Source of the DNA: Leclercia pneumoniae
Lineage (GTDB): Bacteria > Pseudomonadota > Gammaproteobacteria > Enterobacterales > Enterobacteriaceae
Assembly (NCBI RefSeq): GCF_017348915.1
Contig: NZ_CP071383.1
Coordinates: 744,001-808,000, forward strand
Direction of reading: 5' to 3'
DNA length: 64,000 nt
The stretch's first letter is position 1; the number at the start of each line of letters is the position of its first letter. The notes beneath the pieces are model-generated. The model saw only the letters and a list, made by a program, of their open reading frames with translations. It searched no databases and was not told the DNA's origin. Shown piece after piece: positions 1-4,957 of the stretch. The position numbers were made by a program, and so were the translations under genes.

Positions 1-1370
1 TTGGCGCGGTTCTGGTTGATGCGCTGCTGAACATCACGTTGCTGCCCGGAGTGTGAAACCCGATTTTCGGGGCTGCGTGCCAGGGGCTCGCGGCGCGCAT
101 GTTGCGCCGTTTGATGACCGCTGTCGTAGCCACGGTAGTTGTTGCGCCGGGAGATCTGCCTGAGCTGTTCCGTAGACGCCTGGCGCTGCGCGTCCCGGGT
201 GGCTGGTCGCACGGTCTGCGCAAGGGTTTTGCCGGTCGATTTCTCCATCTGGTTCAGGGCTGCCTGACGCTGACCCTCCCTGTTGACCGGTTTTTGCTGT
301 GTCGAACTCAGCCCGGCAGTCGCGTGGGTGGAGTGAAAACGATCGCTGAGCTGGCTGGTAGGATAGGGTATCCCCTCCCGATAGGCCGGATTATGTTGCC
401 AGCGACGGCTGGCGTCCGTCAGGTGCTGTCCGCTGATTTTGTTGAAATTATTAACGTTGATATTGATGTTGTTATCACCGTTGCGGTTATAGCCGCCGTG
501 ATGATCCCAGTCATCATCGTGATGATGGTGATCCCAGTCGTCATCCCAGTTGATATTGCTGAAGAGGGCATAGGTGGTCGCCACGCCCAGGCTGAAGCCT
601 AAACCTTTCACCAGGCTGTTAGTGAACTGCTCGCCGGGGGAAGGGGGTAAATAGACCGGCGGATAAGCGCTGTTGGGCCAGGTGCCATACAGAGTGTTGG
701 GATTATAGGTTGGAACATACACGACCTGCGGGTCGGCCGATTCAATCTTAATCACCGTTGGGCTTGCGGTGGGTGTGGCTATCTGGCTGGCGGCCGTTGT
801 CGCCGGGGCCGATTTTGTCACTGTGGTGACTTTTTGCTGTGGTGTCGATTGTAATGCTCCGGCCTGTTGCGCCAGTAAACGCAGGCGTTGCACCGAGTCC
901 ATCACATCTTTCGGTTGTGCAAGAAACGCATCGCCCAGGTTTTGTACCCAGGGCGGGTTTTCACCCATCAGGGACATGAGCTGTGGAAATGCCACCAGCG
1001 ATTTTACTGACGGGTCCCACGGTTGCGCAGCAACGGCCCGAATAGCTGCATCGCCCTGCATTCTGGGATTGTCTTTTGACCATTGCGCCGCCTGCAGGAC
1101 ATTGGTCGGATAGGTCGAGGCCATCAAAATTTGCGACAGCAGGGCATCCGGGTAGAGCGCGATGGGGGCAACCCACTGATCGATCTGCGCGGCTGTGAAG
1201 GCTGGCGCAACGACGGGATCGGTGACAGGGGCCGCAGGTTGTGCCGCTGTGGGTTGTGCTGCTGGTGCTGGTGGGGTTGTGCGGCTGTTAACGAACATCG
1301 CGCCTGAGGCGGCGAACAGCCCGGCACTGCACAGAAGGACAAGCAGAGGGGGCTTAAAGGGCATCTTCAT
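1..1370 (-). CDS. yacH: DUF3300 family protein YacH (partial, 3' end outside window)
   Basis: The first 456 codons are present; the frame is open at the window edge, so the C-terminus is missing. Residues about 8-27 form a hydrophobic signal peptide or anchor. A proline/alanine-rich linker follows, then a DUF3300 domain from about residue 58 (motif WVAPIALYPDALLSQIL). Around residues 275-310 lie Asp/Trp/His clusters (DDDWDHHHHDDDWDHH) and an alternating Asn/Ile run; the tail is Gln/Arg-rich. This fits YacH of E. coli, which also lies divergent to acnB. The start is the ATG at 1370; a second ATG two codons in cannot be excluded. An exported protein of unknown function; the His/Asp stretch could bind metal, which is inference. 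Confidence 0.85.
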   Translation of the reverse strand, partial: MKMPFKPPLLVLLCSAGLFAASGAMFVNSRTTPPAPAAQPTAAQPAAPVTDPVVAPAFTAAQIDQWVAPIALYPDALLSQILMASTYPTNVLQAAQWSKDNPRMQGDAAIRAVAAQPWDPSVKSLVAFPQLMSLMGENPPWVQNLGDAFLAQPKDVMDSVQRLRLLAQQAGALQSTPQQKVTTVTKSAPATTAASQIATPTASPTVIKIESADPQVVYVPTYNPNTLYGTWPNSAYPPVYLPPSPGEQFTNSLVKGLGFSLGVATTYALFSNINWDDDWDHHHHDDDWDHHGGYNRNGDNNININVNNFNKISGQHLTDASRRWQHNPAYREGIPYPTSQLSDRFHSTHATAGLSSTQQKPVNREGQRQAALNQMEKSTGKTLAQTVRPATRDAQRQASTEQLRQISRRNNYRGYDSGHQTAQHARREPLARSPENRVSHSGQQRDVQQRINQNRA

Positions 1371-1548
1371 AATATGACTCCAACGAGACCAGCGCTGTGT
1401 CGCGCGGCGTTACGGTTGGCGCGAGTATTATTCACCCGCCTTTTTACTTTTTGACTTTTATTGGTAATGGCCCGGTACATCCGGATAAAGAGTGTGAGTA
1501 TTTATTACGCATTGATAATGAATGGCAGGGTTATAGGGAAAATCAGAT

Positions 1549-1568
1549 GGCCGCTCTGGCGAGCGGCC
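1549..1568 (-). terminator. Rho-independent terminator of the small ORF
   Basis: A perfect 8-bp stem (GGCCGCTC/GAGCGGCC) with a 4-base loop lies six bases past the stop codon of the 38-codon ORF. On the minus strand it is followed by ATCTGATTTTCCC. Its position right after a short ORF supports a real short minus-strand transcript. Confidence 0.65.
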
Positions 1569-1573
1569 AACAG

Positions 1574-1690
1574 CTAGTTGCCGAGGTTAACAACAAACAG
1601 CACCGTGATGTCGGATATGCTCCAGCCACCGTGCAGTGCGGTAAGCAGTAAACCGGTCACAACGATCAGCGCATAAATTCGCATCTCCAT
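1574..1690 (-). CDS. Candidate small membrane peptide (38 aa), possible type I toxin
   Basis: Not recognised. The ORF has 38 codons starting MEMRIYALIVVTGLLL, with one strongly hydrophobic segment (about residues 5-19) and a second weaker one (28-36). A GGGA motif lies about 8 bases upstream of the ATG. A terminator hairpin follows the stop directly. It lacks the cysteines typical of Hok and does not match TisB, DinQ, Ldr or Ibs as I remember them. A 45-codon frame (1587-1724, minus) overlaps it in another phase, recalling mok/hok or tisA/tisB leader frames. Its leader shares three blocks with the divergent candidate RNA at 1970-2051. Coding status rests on the terminator and hydrophobicity only. 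Confidence 0.45.
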   Translation of the reverse strand: MEMRIYALIVVTGLLLTALHGGWSISDITVLFVVNLGN

Positions 1691-1754
1691 TGCGTGCGTT
1701 CCCATTCAGGCTACGCGGGTTCATTCTTCACCGGGAAAGGCAGAACCAGGCAAA

Positions 1755-1815
1755 TTGGGGTTTTGCCACGTAGAGGAAGGAACTGCTCCCGGGCCCGGTG
1801 ACTGGTTGCTACACC
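1755..1815. repeat. Repeat copy B in the small-ORF leader
   Basis: On the plus strand this segment contains TTGGGGTTTTGCC (1755-1767), GCCCGGTG (1793-1800) and TGCTACACC (1807-1815). The same three blocks occur in the same order at 1971-2013, with 13/13 and 8/8 identity and one inserted base in the third. Transcribed from the minus strand it would form the leader about 65-125 nt before the small ORF start. Confidence 0.65.
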
Positions 1816-1969
1816 AGCGAAGCAGGCCGTGGAAAAGCGTAGTGGATTTAAAGGATGTGAAGAGGAGAAAAACAGCGTTTACATAGGGTTTCATCGAAAA
1901 CGGGAAGGCGCCGCGCAGAATAAAAAAATCACCTTGCAAGTCGATATGAAGGGGAGCAATATTCTCTGC

Positions 1970-2051
1970 GTTGGGGTTTTGCCGCAAATCTGCCAGCCCG
2001 GTGTGCTACCACCCTAAGGCAACAAATTAACCGCTTTTAGGCGGTTTTTTT
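1970..2051 (+). ncRNA. Candidate small RNA, possible antitoxin
   Basis: Inferred transcript of about 80 nt. A modest promoter is visible: TTGCAA (1934-1939), 18-bp spacer, AATATT (1958-1963). A terminator ends the unit at 2029-2051. The 5' part holds repeat copy A (1971-1983, 1996-2003, 2004-2013), complementary to the leader of the minus-strand small ORF over 13, 8 and about 9 bases. The size, divergent placement and 5' pairing region resemble IstR-1 of the tisB system. No LexA box was seen. The promoter match is weak and there is no expression evidence, so this is a hypothesis. Confidence 0.4.
2029..2051 (+). terminator. Rho-independent terminator
   Basis: Six-base-pair stem AACCGC/GCGGTT with a 6-base loop, followed by five further T. 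It lies about 210 bases upstream of acnB and belongs to no annotated gene, so something short must be transcribed rightwards into it. Confidence 0.65.
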
Positions 2052-2088
2052 GTGCCCTGAACATACCCTCTCTCCCTGCTATACCATT

Positions 2089-2103
2089 CTTAACGATTCA
2101 GCA
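2089..2103. promoter_or_regulatory. Cra (FruR)-like operator upstream of acnB
   Basis: The complement reads GCTGAATCGTTAAG, close to the Cra consensus half GCTGAAWCG. It sits about 45 bases upstream of the -35 box proposed for acnB. E. coli acnB is reported to be controlled by Cra, CRP, ArcA and Fis; only the Cra-like motif is read here. Confidence 0.45.
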
Positions 2104-2134
2104 AAGTATTTAATGTTGCTTTTTTGTAAACAGA

Positions 2135-2163
2135 TTAACACTGTGCAGAAATCCTGCTATGCT
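2135..2163 (+). promoter_or_regulatory. acnB promoter
   Basis: TTAACA (2135-2140), 17-bp spacer, TATGCT (2158-2163), with TGC immediately before the -10 box. The start of transcription would be near 2170, leaving a leader of about 95 nt before the GTG of acnB. Confidence 0.5.
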
Positions 2164-2263
2164 GCCCGACGCGGTATCGGGCATTTACCCTACAAACTGC
2201 TGTCTCACAGGAGCGTGAAGAGAACGCCGGCCGCATATGACAATGAGAGCGAGGAGAACCGTC

Positions 2264-4861
2264 GTGCTAGAAGAATACCGTAAGCACGTAGCAGAACGTG
2301 CCGCCGAGGGAATTGTACCCAAACCTTTAGATGCAACCCAAATGGCCGCGCTCGTCGAGCTGCTGAAGAATCCGCCTAAGGGCGAAGAAGAATTCCTGTT
2401 AGATCTGTTGATCAACCGTGTACCGCCTGGCGTAGATGAAGCTGCCTATGTCAAAGCCGGATTCCTTGCCGCCATTGCTAAAGGCGATGCGACCTCCCCC
2501 CTGGTTACTCCTGAAAAAGCGATTGAACTGCTCGGCACCATGCAGGGCGGCTATAACATTCATCCGCTGATTGATGCGCTGGATAACGACACGCTGGCAC
2601 CGATTGCCGCGAAAGCGCTCTCTTCAACGCTGCTGATGTTCGATAACTTCTACGATGTGGAAGAGAAAGCGAAAGCGGGCAACGTCTACGCGAAGCAGGT
2701 GATGCAGTCCTGGGCCGATGCTGAATGGTTCCTGAACCGTCCTGCGCTGGCTGAAAAAATCACCGTTACCGTCTTCAAAGTGACCGGTGAAACTAACACC
2801 GATGACCTCTCTCCGGCACCGGATGCGTGGTCTCGCCCGGACATCCCTCTGCACGCCCTGGCGATGCTGAAAAACGCCCGTGAAGGTATCGAGCCGGATC
2901 AGCCTGGCAGCGTGGGCCCGATCAAGCAGATCGAAGCCCTGCAGCAGAAAGGTTTCCCGCTGGCCTACGTTGGTGACGTTGTGGGTACCGGTTCTTCCCG
3001 TAAATCGGCAACCAACTCCGTGCTGTGGTTCATGGGCGATGATATCCCGCATGTGCCGAACAAACGCGGCGGCGGTCTGTGCCTCGGTGGCAAAATTGCC
3101 CCTATCTTCTTTAACACCATGGAAGATGCGGGCGCGCTGCCAATCGAAGTGGATGTTTCTAACCTGAACATGGGCGACGTGATTGACGTTTACCCGTTCA
3201 AAGGCGAAGTGCGTAACCACGAAACCAACGAACTGCTGGCCAGCTTCGCGCTGAAAACCGACGTGCTGATTGACGAAGTCCGCGCCGGTGGCCGTATTCC
3301 GCTGATCATTGGCCGTGGCCTGACCACCAAAGCGCGTGAAGCGCTCGGTCTGCCGCACAGCGATGTGTTCCGTCAGGCGAAAGACGTGGCTGAAAGCAGC
3401 CGTGGTTTCTCTCTGGCGCAGAAAATGGTTGGCCGCGCGTGCGGCGTCGCGGGCGTCCGTCCGGGCGCGTACTGCGAACCGAAGATGACCTCTGTCGGTT
3501 CTCAGGATACCACCGGCCCAATGACCCGTGACGAACTGAAAGACCTGGCGTGCCTGGGCTTCTCTTCCGATCTGGTGATGCAGTCCTTCTGCCACACGGC
3601 GGCCTATCCGAAGCCGGTTGATGTGACCACGCACCACACGCTGCCAGACTTCATCATGAACCGTGGCGGCGTCTCTCTGCGTCCGGGCGATGGCGTTATC
3701 CACTCCTGGCTGAACCGCATGCTGTTGCCAGATACCGTGGGTACCGGCGGTGACTCCCACACCCGTTTCCCAATCGGGATCTCCTTCCCGGCGGGCTCCG
3801 GTCTGGTGGCCTTCGCCGCTGCGACCGGCGTTATGCCACTGGATATGCCGGAGTCCGTGCTCGTGCGCTTCAAAGGCAAAATGCAGCCGGGTATCACTCT
3901 GCGCGACCTGGTTCACGCCATCCCGCTGTACGCTATCAAACAGGGCCTGCTGACCGTTGAGAAGAAGGGCAAGAAAAACATCTTCTCTGGCCGTATCCTG
4001 GAGATCGAAGGTCTGCCGGATCTGAAAGTGGAGCAGGCGTTCGAACTGACCGATGCCTCCGCTGAGCGTTCTGCTGCAGGCTGTACCATCAAGCTGAACC
4101 AGGCGCCGATTGAAGAGTATCTGACCTCCAACATCGTCCTGCTGAAGTGGATGATTGCCGAAGGCTATGGCGATCGTCGTACCCTGGAGCGTCGTATTCA
4201 GGGCATGGAAAAATGGCTGGCGGATCCGCAGCTGCTGGAAGCTGACGCTGATGCAGAATACGCGGCCGTGATCGACATCGATCTGGCTGATATCAAAGAG
4301 CCGATCCTCTGTGCACCGAACGATCCGGACGATGCGCGTCCACTCTCTGCAGTGCAGGGCGAGAAGATCGACGAAGTGTTCATCGGTTCCTGTATGACCA
4401 ACATCGGCCACTTCCGTGCTGCCGGTAAGCTGCTGGATACCCATAAAGGCCAGCTGCCAACCCGCCTGTGGGTGGCACCGCCAACCCGTATGGACGCGGC
4501 TCAGCTGACCGAAGAGGGCTACTATAGCGTGTTTGGTAAGAGCGGTGCGCGTATCGAAATCCCTGGCTGCTCCCTGTGCATGGGTAACCAGGCGCGCGTG
4601 GCGGACGGTGCGACGGTGGTCTCCACCTCTACCCGTAACTTCCCGAACCGTTTAGGTACCGGTGCAAACGTCTTCCTGGCCTCCGCGGAGCTGGCGGCGG
4701 TTGCGGCGCTGATTGGCAAGCTGCCAACGCCGGAAGAGTACCAGACCTTTGTGGCTCAGGTTGATAAGACGGCTGTTGATACCTATCGCTATCTGAACTT
4801 CGATCAGCTCTCTCAGTACACCGAGAAAGCGGACGGGGTTATCTTCCAGACGGCAGTATAA
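2264..4861 (+). CDS. acnB: Aconitate hydratase B (bifunctional aconitase / 2-methylisocitrate dehydratase)
   Basis: Interconverts citrate and isocitrate in the TCA cycle; AcnB also dehydrates 2-methylisocitrate and, without its cluster, binds mRNA. The product has 865 residues, as in E. coli. It has an N-terminal HEAT-like domain (about 1-160), a swivel domain (about 160-370) and the catalytic core. Cluster cysteines are visible in GSCMTNIGH and in PGCSLCMGN near the C-terminus. I chose the GTG at 2264 because the protein then begins with the [15 protein letters not shown] of AcnB; an upstream in-frame ATG would add nine non-homologous residues. Monocistronic, with its own promoter and a large inverted repeat downstream. 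Confidence 0.97.
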
Positions 4862-4867
4862 AAGCAT

Positions 4868-4957
4868 CCCCTCACCCCCAGCCCCTCTCCCCGGAGGGGC
4901 GAGGGGAGCCCAGTTTCCTCTCCCCTCTGGGGAGAGGGTTGGGTGAGGGGATTTTTT
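4868..4957 (+). repeat. Paired CCCTCACCC/CTCTCCCC inverted repeat, likely acnB terminator
   Basis: Two oppositely oriented arms (about 4868-4892 and 4929-4950) carry CCCTCACCC-CTCTCCCC and its complement GGGGAGAGGG-GTGAGGGG. They enclose smaller CTCCCC hairpins and are followed by ATTTTTTATTTT. The same core motif occurs at 9276, 35270 and 35361. Probably an intergenic dispersed palindrome that also terminates acnB. Confidence 0.7.

What the first reader, a model, noticed from the sequence alone, without database searches (positions are those of the whole stretch)
1549..2051. Possible type I toxin-antitoxin module between yacH and acnB
A 38-codon hydrophobic ORF on the minus strand (1574-1690) is followed at once by a terminator. 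On the plus strand a transcript ending at the terminator 2029-2051 would carry TTGGGGTTTTGCC, GCCCGGTG and TGCTACCACC. The complement of the same three blocks lies in the same order in the ORF's leader, 65-125 nt before its start. Divergent sRNA, interrupted trans-complementarity to a distant leader site, and a tiny membrane peptide are the hallmarks of tisB/istR-1, zorO/orzO and dinQ/agrB. The peptide does not resemble those I know. The duplicated 13-mer within 220 bases is unlikely by chance. Promoters are weak and no LexA box is seen.
Basis: partly seen in the sequence, partly recalled or inferred. Interest (0 to 1): 0.78.

Follow-up and report, generated by a model that had tools for sequence, protein, structure and literature searches.

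The report
Divergent TimPR toxin-antitoxin locus near acnB
The stretch holds a diverged copy of a known bacterial self-toxin and the small RNA that silences it, and comparing relatives suggests that this RNA grips the toxin message at two places rather than the one place described so far.

Summary
The minus strand of 1830-1543 is a diverged timP (ryfA) mRNA; the plus strand of about 1967-2051 is its TimR antitoxin. This is a TimPR-type type I toxin-antitoxin, not a tisB/zorO/dinQ relative. Rfam's ryfA model aligns over its full length (E 1e-5, 32.9 bits, cut-off 80); NCBIfam's TimP model misses the peptide.

The module is nearly full length in 24 of 61 same-genus genomes; all 24 keep the 38/39-codon frame. 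TimR block 1 and its target hairpin SL2 change in step (21 haplotypes; first 12 positions paired in 24 of 24; 0 of 20,000 permutations as good). The published four stem-loops and the SL1-SL3 pseudoknot are conserved.

The SL1 apical loop, beside the pseudoknot strand, is complementary to a TimR hairpin loop, and both covary across the family (121 of 135 positions paired; 0 of 20,000 permutations; 16 of 18 later copies; one genus is an exception). The text I could read describes only the SL2 contact and calls unresolved how TimR breaks the pseudoknot. Block 2 is weakly supported. No expression data were available.

The parts
1543..1830 (-). predicted timP (ryfA) mRNA; both ends inferred from the Rfam alignment
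   Evidence: RF00126 full length 1-296, 32.9 bits, E 1.1e-5, below cut-off 80
1574..1690 (-). TimP-like 38-aa toxin frame
   Evidence: kept in 24 of 24 intact same-genus copies; codon-position diversity .049/.048/.165; profile match to TimP, hhalign 96.9
1783..1825 (-). leader stem-loop SL1, with an inner hairpin at 1802-1817
   Evidence: consensus fold of 23 acnB-type leaders; coordinates
1807..1812 (-). SL1 apical loop GUAGCA, proposed site of the TimR loop-loop contact
   Evidence: covaries with the TimR hairpin loop
1794..1800 (-). SL1 strand of the pseudoknot, CACCGGG
   Evidence: complementary to 1729-1735; same in 24 of 24 same-genus copies
1749..1767 (-). leader stem-loop SL2; TimR block-1 target at 1755-1767
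   Evidence: covariation with TimR; fold
1718..1747 (-). leader stem-loop SL3, holding the pseudoknot strand CCCGGUG at 1729-1735
   Evidence: fold and pair counts
1701..1710 (-). leader stem-loop SL4 over the Shine-Dalgarno region
   Evidence: both-side changes in 2 of its 3 pairs; 91.3% of cells paired
1548..1569 (-). timP terminator
   Evidence: terminator scan
1967..2051 (+). TimR antitoxin RNA; 5' end inferred, not mapped
   Evidence: conserved element before a terminator, with block 1 complementary to SL2
1971..1983 (+). TimR block 1, antisense to SL2
1991..2021 (+). TimR internal hairpin; loop UGCUAC at 2004-2009 (block 3)
   Evidence: minimum-energy fold; loop covaries with the SL1 loop
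   Evidence: changed in 2 of 24 copies; not kept in most other genera
2029..2051 (+). TimR terminator
1934..1962 (+). weak TimR promoter candidate, TTGCAA-17-CAATAT
   Evidence: read by eye, coordinates; not found by the scan

Best explanation
The locus is a TimPR-family type I toxin-antitoxin. timP (1830-1543 minus) makes a structured mRNA for a 38-aa membrane peptide. Its ribosome site lies in SL4 and, by analogy with Salmonella, translation needs the SL1-SL3 pseudoknot. TimR (about 1967-2051 plus) is transcribed divergently and silences it by two contacts: its 5' tail (block 1) zips into the loop and 5' arm of SL2, and the loop of its internal hairpin kisses the apical loop of SL1. Held at both sites, SL1 cannot keep the pseudoknot with SL3, so the toxin is not made. 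Shown here by comparison: homology, reading frame, leader structure, pseudoknot complementarity, covariation of both contacts. Inferred: transcription, toxicity, pseudoknot dependence in this copy, and that the kissing contact is what breaks the pseudoknot.
For: ryfA model full length; peptide profiles match TimP; frame kept in 24 of 24 and coding-type diversity; block 1 and SL2 covary, cognate -28.7 against -20.3 kcal/mol, 0 of 20,000 permutations, first 12 positions paired in 24 of 24, 16, 17 and jointly 18 changes on an acnB tree of the 23 copies with acnB in reach; four stem-loops and pseudoknot, 98.1% of 805 cells paired; SL1 loop and TimR loop covary, 121 of 135, 0 of 20,000 permutations, 16 of 18 later copies; six loci keep TimR after loss of the timP frame.
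Against: Rfam score below its cut-off and no NCBIfam hit. In 9 of 21 haplotypes some other allele's partner binds more strongly than the own one. The loop-loop contact is 4 bp in K-12 and fails in one genus, g127. Published probing mentions no change at the SL1 loop, and the commentary says TimR binding does not overlap the pseudoknot region. RNAalifold did not find the TimR hairpin on the MAFFT alignment, and some TimRs fold otherwise. The measure 'further pair types' does not exceed shuffles (19 against 19.7). No expression data.
Confidence: 0.7

Rival explanations
1. Ordinary TimPR with a single functional contact: TimR pairs with SL2 only, as published, and the loop-loop match is a relic or serves something else, such as TimR stability or protein binding.
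For: Changing the SL2 site alone abolished rescue by TimR in Salmonella; no SL1 change was mentioned in probing; K-12 has only 4 bp and genus g127 lacks the match.
Against: The two loops change together across the family and the TimR motif sits in a hairpin loop although the stems differ.
Confidence: 0.22
2. The pair is homologous to TimPR but is not a toxin-antitoxin in practice: the peptide is a harmless membrane protein at native levels, or the RNA acts mainly as a regulator, as proposed for RyfA in Shigella and E. coli.
For: Deleting timR in Salmonella raised TimP without slowing growth; RyfA was studied as a regulatory RNA (passages); the module is often lost in the genus.
Against: Coding constraint and kept antitoxin matching; TimR persists without timP in six loci, and no frame without a matching TimR was seen in the 60 of 61 same-genus genomes whose locus I had.
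Confidence: 0.06
3. The repeats are chance or are kept alike by gene conversion between direct repeats, with no RNA pairing.
For: 26 of 5,000 simulations hold a 13-mer repeat; the two blocks are direct repeats on the DNA.
Against: One-sided differences inside the core are G-U pairs rather than mismatches in 24 of 24 copies; a 13-mer does not explain the matching loop elsewhere.
Confidence: 0.01
4. A member of tisB/istR-1, zorO/orzO or dinQ/agrB.
For: Same divergent layout and distant leader target; Rfam istR gives a sub-threshold match (21.3 bits, cut-off 45) on the minus strand of 1547-1625, covering the timP terminator.
Against: That match covers the end of the frame and the terminator of the toxin gene, not the sRNA; ryfA matches over its full length and the peptide is homologous to TimP.
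Confidence: 0.01

Closest known systems
timPR (ryfA/timR) of Salmonella Typhimurium and E. coli, at sseA-sseB
   Same: 38-aa (K-12: 41-aa) hydrophobic peptide, divergent sRNA whose 5' end pairs with a leader hairpin far upstream of the start, four leader stem-loops, SL1-SL3 pseudoknot
   Different: Genomic place (yacH-acnB); peptide and RNA fall below NCBIfam and Rfam cut-offs; an extra helix closes over SL2 and SL3 in the consensus fold; 6-bp loop-loop contact against 4 bp in K-12; block 1 is 12-14 bp against 18 nt
RyfA1/RyfB1 and RyfA2/RyfB2 of Shigella dysenteriae
   Same: Sibling copies whose short variable region overlaps the antisense site and sets specificity (passages only)
   Different: Described as regulatory RNAs; two siblings in one genome, against many alleles at one place in a genus here
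AapA1/IsoA1 of Helicobacter pylori
   Same: Antitoxin RNA contacts the toxin mRNA by kissing loops (one passage of a review)
   Different: Not homologous as far as known (recalled); there the mRNA is processed first
tisB/istR-1, zorO/orzO, dinQ/agrB
   Same: Divergent sRNA, distant leader site, small membrane peptide
   Different: No homology found here; tisB, zorO and dinQ mRNAs need processing, timP is reported not to

Membership tests
TimPR | Toxin peptide homologous to TimP | tested here: met
   Profile-profile match, hhalign probability 96.9 to canonical TimP and 98.4 to an intermediate group; the NCBIfam TimP model itself gives no hit at E up to 1
TimPR | timP RNA matches the ryfA model at its curated cut-off | tested here: not met
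   Full-length alignment but 32.9 bits against 80. This is a detection threshold rather than a biological feature; acnB-linked relatives L046-L048 pass it
TimPR | Divergent sRNA with terminator whose 5' part is complementary to the timP leader | tested here: met
   24 of 24 same-genus copies; in the wider set 60 of 65 distinct copies score 10 or more in a fixed window, four of the other five reach 10.2-17.8 in a wider one, L041 does not; L037, L049 and L118 had been dropped without a clear block 1
TimPR | Leader of four stem-loops with the Shine-Dalgarno in SL4 | tested here: met
TimPR | SL1-SL3 pseudoknot | tested here: met
   7-bp helix, 99.4% of cells paired in 23 leaders, mostly invariant
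TimPR | Peptide is toxic when overexpressed and enters the inner membrane | not testable with these tools
   No experiment; hydrophobic N-terminus kept in relatives
TimPR | Both RNAs are transcribed and TimR blocks translation | not testable with these tools
   No expression data
tisB/istR-1 | Antitoxin matches the istR model | tested here: not met
   21.3 bits, cut-off 45, and on the toxin gene's strand rather than the sRNA
zorO/orzO and dinQ/agrB | Toxin peptide homology | not tested
   No direct comparison made; Pfam and NCBIfam list no family for the window peptide

The most novel reading that the evidence does not exclude
Across the TimPR family TimR is a two-point clamp: a fast-evolving 5' tail that sets which timP it recognises, and a hairpin loop that kisses the apical loop of SL1 next to the pseudoknot strand. 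The kiss explains why TimR prefers the pseudoknotted message and how it breaks the pseudoknot. The two block-1 elements sit at the inner edges of the divergent genes, so one recombination event can swap both at once, giving partly orthogonal alleles within a genus.
Probability: 0.6. Interest if true: 0.75.

Novelty: new variant of a known kind. Interest (0 to 1): 0.6.

Why it matters
The 2024 study of timP states that why TimR prefers the pseudoknotted message and how it destabilises the pseudoknot are unresolved. The covarying loop-loop contact gives a concrete answer that a few loop changes in E. coli K-12 could test. The locus also shows that the family is wider than Rfam and NCBIfam cut-offs report, and that antitoxin specificity diversifies quickly within one genus.

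Tried and rejected
Block 2 as a pseudoknot mimic: attractive in the window, since it repeats the SL3 strand, but 2 of 24 copies have an uncompensated change and most other genera lack it (by eye); kept only as a genus-level possibility. RNAalifold on the MAFFT alignment of 21 TimRs found only the terminator; the hairpin rests on folding each TimR, with other minimum-energy folds or lower loop probabilities in L040 and L081 and, less so, in L032, L041, L083 and L116. My first automatic choice of the SL1 hairpin picked wrong stems in many rows and my first loop patterns missed rows; the counts used are those, whose patterns were tuned on those rows. One search used the same SL1 and TimR patterns on new loci, but on a longer upstream stretch with a terminator filter; L160 and L161 also gave a second pattern hit outside a TimR-like hairpin, which I set aside, and L158 gave two TimR-like hits, both GAA. 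Most of those 14 loci are kin of rows already seen, so the test is not independent by descent. Rows dropped before the count: L037, L049, L051, L118, L120 (no or weak block 1, or wrong frame); L053, L059, L061, L078, L088 gave no frame; L048 was lost by the TimR pattern though its loop reads GCTAA. In one search L172 and L174 gave no copy and L118 and L177 no block 1. The 94 ids hold duplicates: 65 distinct sequences, 46 units in the permutation. RF00126 hits outside family code f1 look like chance: 23-27 bits and short, and no frame in the two I examined, L111 and L113. YacH context lines used a mistranslated query and are not relied on; yacH was confirmed. A 'near' plasmid search of window 1000-3000 matched only its acnB part.

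Full report
What is there. The region lies between yacH (K-12 YacH aligns at 53% to 1370-81 minus) and acnB (95% from 2264; frame from 2237). Taken alone the 13-mer repeat is only mildly unlikely: 26 of 5,000 Markov simulations match it.

What it is. Rfam's ryfA model aligns over its full length, 1-296, to 1830-1543 minus at 32.9 bits, E 1.1e-5, under the curated cut-off of 80; it is the one match at E up to 1 in the genome. ryfA is now known as timP, the mRNA of a 38-aa toxic inner-membrane peptide, repressed by the divergent sRNA TimR (PMC7667032, parts 1-4 of 7 read; PMC11228461, parts 1-4 of 5 read). NCBIfam's TimP model does not see the window peptide at E up to 1, but a profile of 12 acnB-type peptides matches a profile of 10 canonical TimPs, K-12 included, with hhalign probability 96.9, and an intermediate group of six with 98.4. 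L046 and L047 of that intermediate group, and L048, are themselves acnB-linked and pass Rfam's cut-off.

Spread. DNA of the module matches in 34 of 61 same-genus genomes; in 24 of them, the window's own included, the match covers at least 495 of 518 bases. The peptide is found in 22 of 295 family genomes, 13 of 154 genera; ryfA itself in 46 of 392 family genomes at E up to 1e-8, 35 of them over the cut-off. A scan of named genomes gave 18 acnB-linked loci, three of them partial, in Enterobacter, Huaxiibacter, Leclercia, Lelliottia, Atlantibacter, Trabulsiella, Cedecea and one unnamed Enterobacteriaceae; eleven are identical to unnamed loci already counted. K-12 has 354 bases between yacH and acnB and no such genes annotated there.

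Loss. In 30 further same-genus genomes the yacH-acnB gap is 286-508 bases against 865 in the window; a pattern search found no timP-like frame in 30 of 30, and 7 of 30 keep a piece of the module that BLAST detects. In six partial loci (L026-L031) TimR reads complete while the timP frame is deleted (by eye). With the 24 intact copies this makes 60 of the 61 genomes (G043's locus was not fetched): none has the frame without a matching TimR.

Reading frame. All 24 copies keep a 38- or 39-codon frame from the ATG at 1690; the ATG at 1705 is not conserved and the second ATG of the frame is lost in L025. Diversity at codon positions 1, 2, 3 is .049.048.165.

First contact, block 1. TimR 1971-1983 pairs with the 5' arm and loop of SL2 (1755-1767). 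Among 24 copies there are 21 haplotypes; cognate pairs average -28.7 kcal/mol, non-cognate -20.3, and none of 20,000 permutations is as good. The own partner is the strongest, ties included, for 12 of 21 TimRs; for the other 9 some other allele's target binds more strongly, so specificity is by allele group rather than strict. In 24 of 24 the first 12 positions are Watson-Crick or G-U, and length changes are shared by both sides. On an acnB tree of the 23 copies with acnB in reach, TimR block 1 changes at least 16 times, SL2 17, the joint state 18; 9 of 25 inner branches of that tree are unresolved. Diversity is .185 and .265 in these two elements and about .4 between them, but .026 in SL1 and .048 in the TimR body. 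L017 looks recombinant: its peptide and TimR body resemble L005/L009, its block 1, middle and SL2 resemble L015/L020 (by eye). Likewise, among the 18 named loci, the window's acnB is nearest to E. quasihormaechei (94.4%) but its module to E. wuhouensis (90.1%). A published precedent is the variable region tied to RyfB1 specificity in Shigella (PMC5333039, passages only). In five genomes with several copies the own target was best for 10 of 11 TimRs compared (G087's fourth and G175's third copy were not included); L083's TimR prefers its tandem neighbour.

Leader. RNAalifold on 23 acnB-type leaders returns four stem-loops in the published order, SL4 over the Shine-Dalgarno region, plus a helix closing over SL2 and SL3. 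With the SL1-SL3 pseudoknot (CACCGGG with CCCGGUG) added, 98.1% of 805 cells pair; 25 cells have both sides changed against 7.9 in shuffles (0 of 500) and 7 pairs do against 3.2 (1 of 500), but the number of further pair types does not exceed shuffles (19 against 19.7). The pseudoknot helix hardly varies in this set, so here it rests on conservation; changes that keep it are seen in L081 and L083 (by eye).

Second contact, block 3. The apical loop of SL1 (GUAGCA) is the reverse complement of the loop of a TimR hairpin (UGCUAC). Across the family the three bases next to the shared GC read, SL1 against TimR: GTA/TAC, GTG/CAC, TTA/TAA, TAA/TTA, CTC/GAA (2 of 3 pair; K-12 is of this type), CTA/TAA (2 of 3) and, in one genus, CTT/TAA (1 of 3). 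In 46 units, 45 with a TimR read, 121 of 135 positions pair; no permutation of 20,000 reaches this and the best gives 97. It holds within acnB-like leaders (81 of 81) and within canonical ones (40 of 54) taken apart, 0 of 20,000 each. The permutation does not remove shared descent. On a tree of 48 peptides, poorly resolved, SL1 changes 9 times, TimR 7, jointly 9, so the TimR changes can all coincide with SL1 changes. In 14 new copies both near positions pair in 12; the two failures belong to the same genus code, g127, as before. Four more new copies read by eye (two tandem in L171, L175, L176) agree. The motif lies in a hairpin loop in most TimRs folded although the stems differ; L040 and L081 are clear exceptions.

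Mechanism proposed. By analogy the message needs the SL1-SL3 pseudoknot to be translated, and TimR disrupts it. The commentary says TimR binding does not overlap the pseudoknot region (PMC11295053, part 1 of 2), and the authors call the reason for TimR's preference and the way it destabilises the pseudoknot unresolved. A kiss on the SL1 loop, a few bases from the pseudoknot strand, together with block 1 on SL2, would hold SL1 away from SL3. This step is inference. Against it: published probing mentions no change at the SL1 loop, changing the SL2 site alone abolishes rescue, so the kiss cannot suffice by itself, and K-12 offers only 4 bp.

Novelty. Searches for TimP/TimR/ryfA (20 of 42 papers listed), TimP with TimR and kissing (the one hit uses kissing for Helicobacter), ryfA with Enterobacter and toxin-antitoxin and acnB/yacH/type I toxin showed no report of this locus or of an SL1-TimR contact in the listings and passages I saw. 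A 2026 paper on RyfA and TimR was searched by term only (PMC13188913). Supplements were not available. I therefore call the locus a new variant of a known kind.

Noticed in passing
L026-L031, yacH-acnB interval: Six same-genus loci keep a TimR with block 1, hairpin and terminator although the timP frame is gone: orphan antitoxins that might still silence incoming timP alleles.
   Followed up: partly
L045, L107, L108, L109 (same genus, other genomic places): A second TimPR type, over Rfam's cut-off (103-110 bits), occurs in some same-genus genomes; G010 holds both this type and the acnB type, with targets that do not cross-pair well.
   Followed up: partly
L122 (G247), L171 (G760), L123 (G349): Tandem timPR modules. 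In L122 and L171 the two copies differ in block 1 and each matches its own TimR; in L123 one TimR prefers the neighbour's target.
   Followed up: partly
L039, L085, L168, L169 (genus code g127): The one genus where the SL1 loop and TimR loop do not match although block 1 does (L039, L085): a natural test of whether the loop-loop contact is needed.
   Followed up: no
window 1788-1797 (minus strand): Self-complementary CCGGGCCCGG in SL1 of timP, which could let two messages dimerise.
   Followed up: no
L008 (G048) and L126 (G037): Both carry a shared short stretch (GTTGGATGTCCAACTTTCGGGGTTC) at the module, in L008 replacing part of the TimR terminator; looks like the end of an inserted element.
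   Followed up: no
L118 (G087): A fourth timP copy in G087 where a TimR-like hairpin and terminator lie where SL1 should be; no block 1 was found.
   Followed up: no
window 4866-4952: Long G+C-rich inverted repeat just after acnB; Rfam gives only chance-level microRNA matches there.
   Followed up: no
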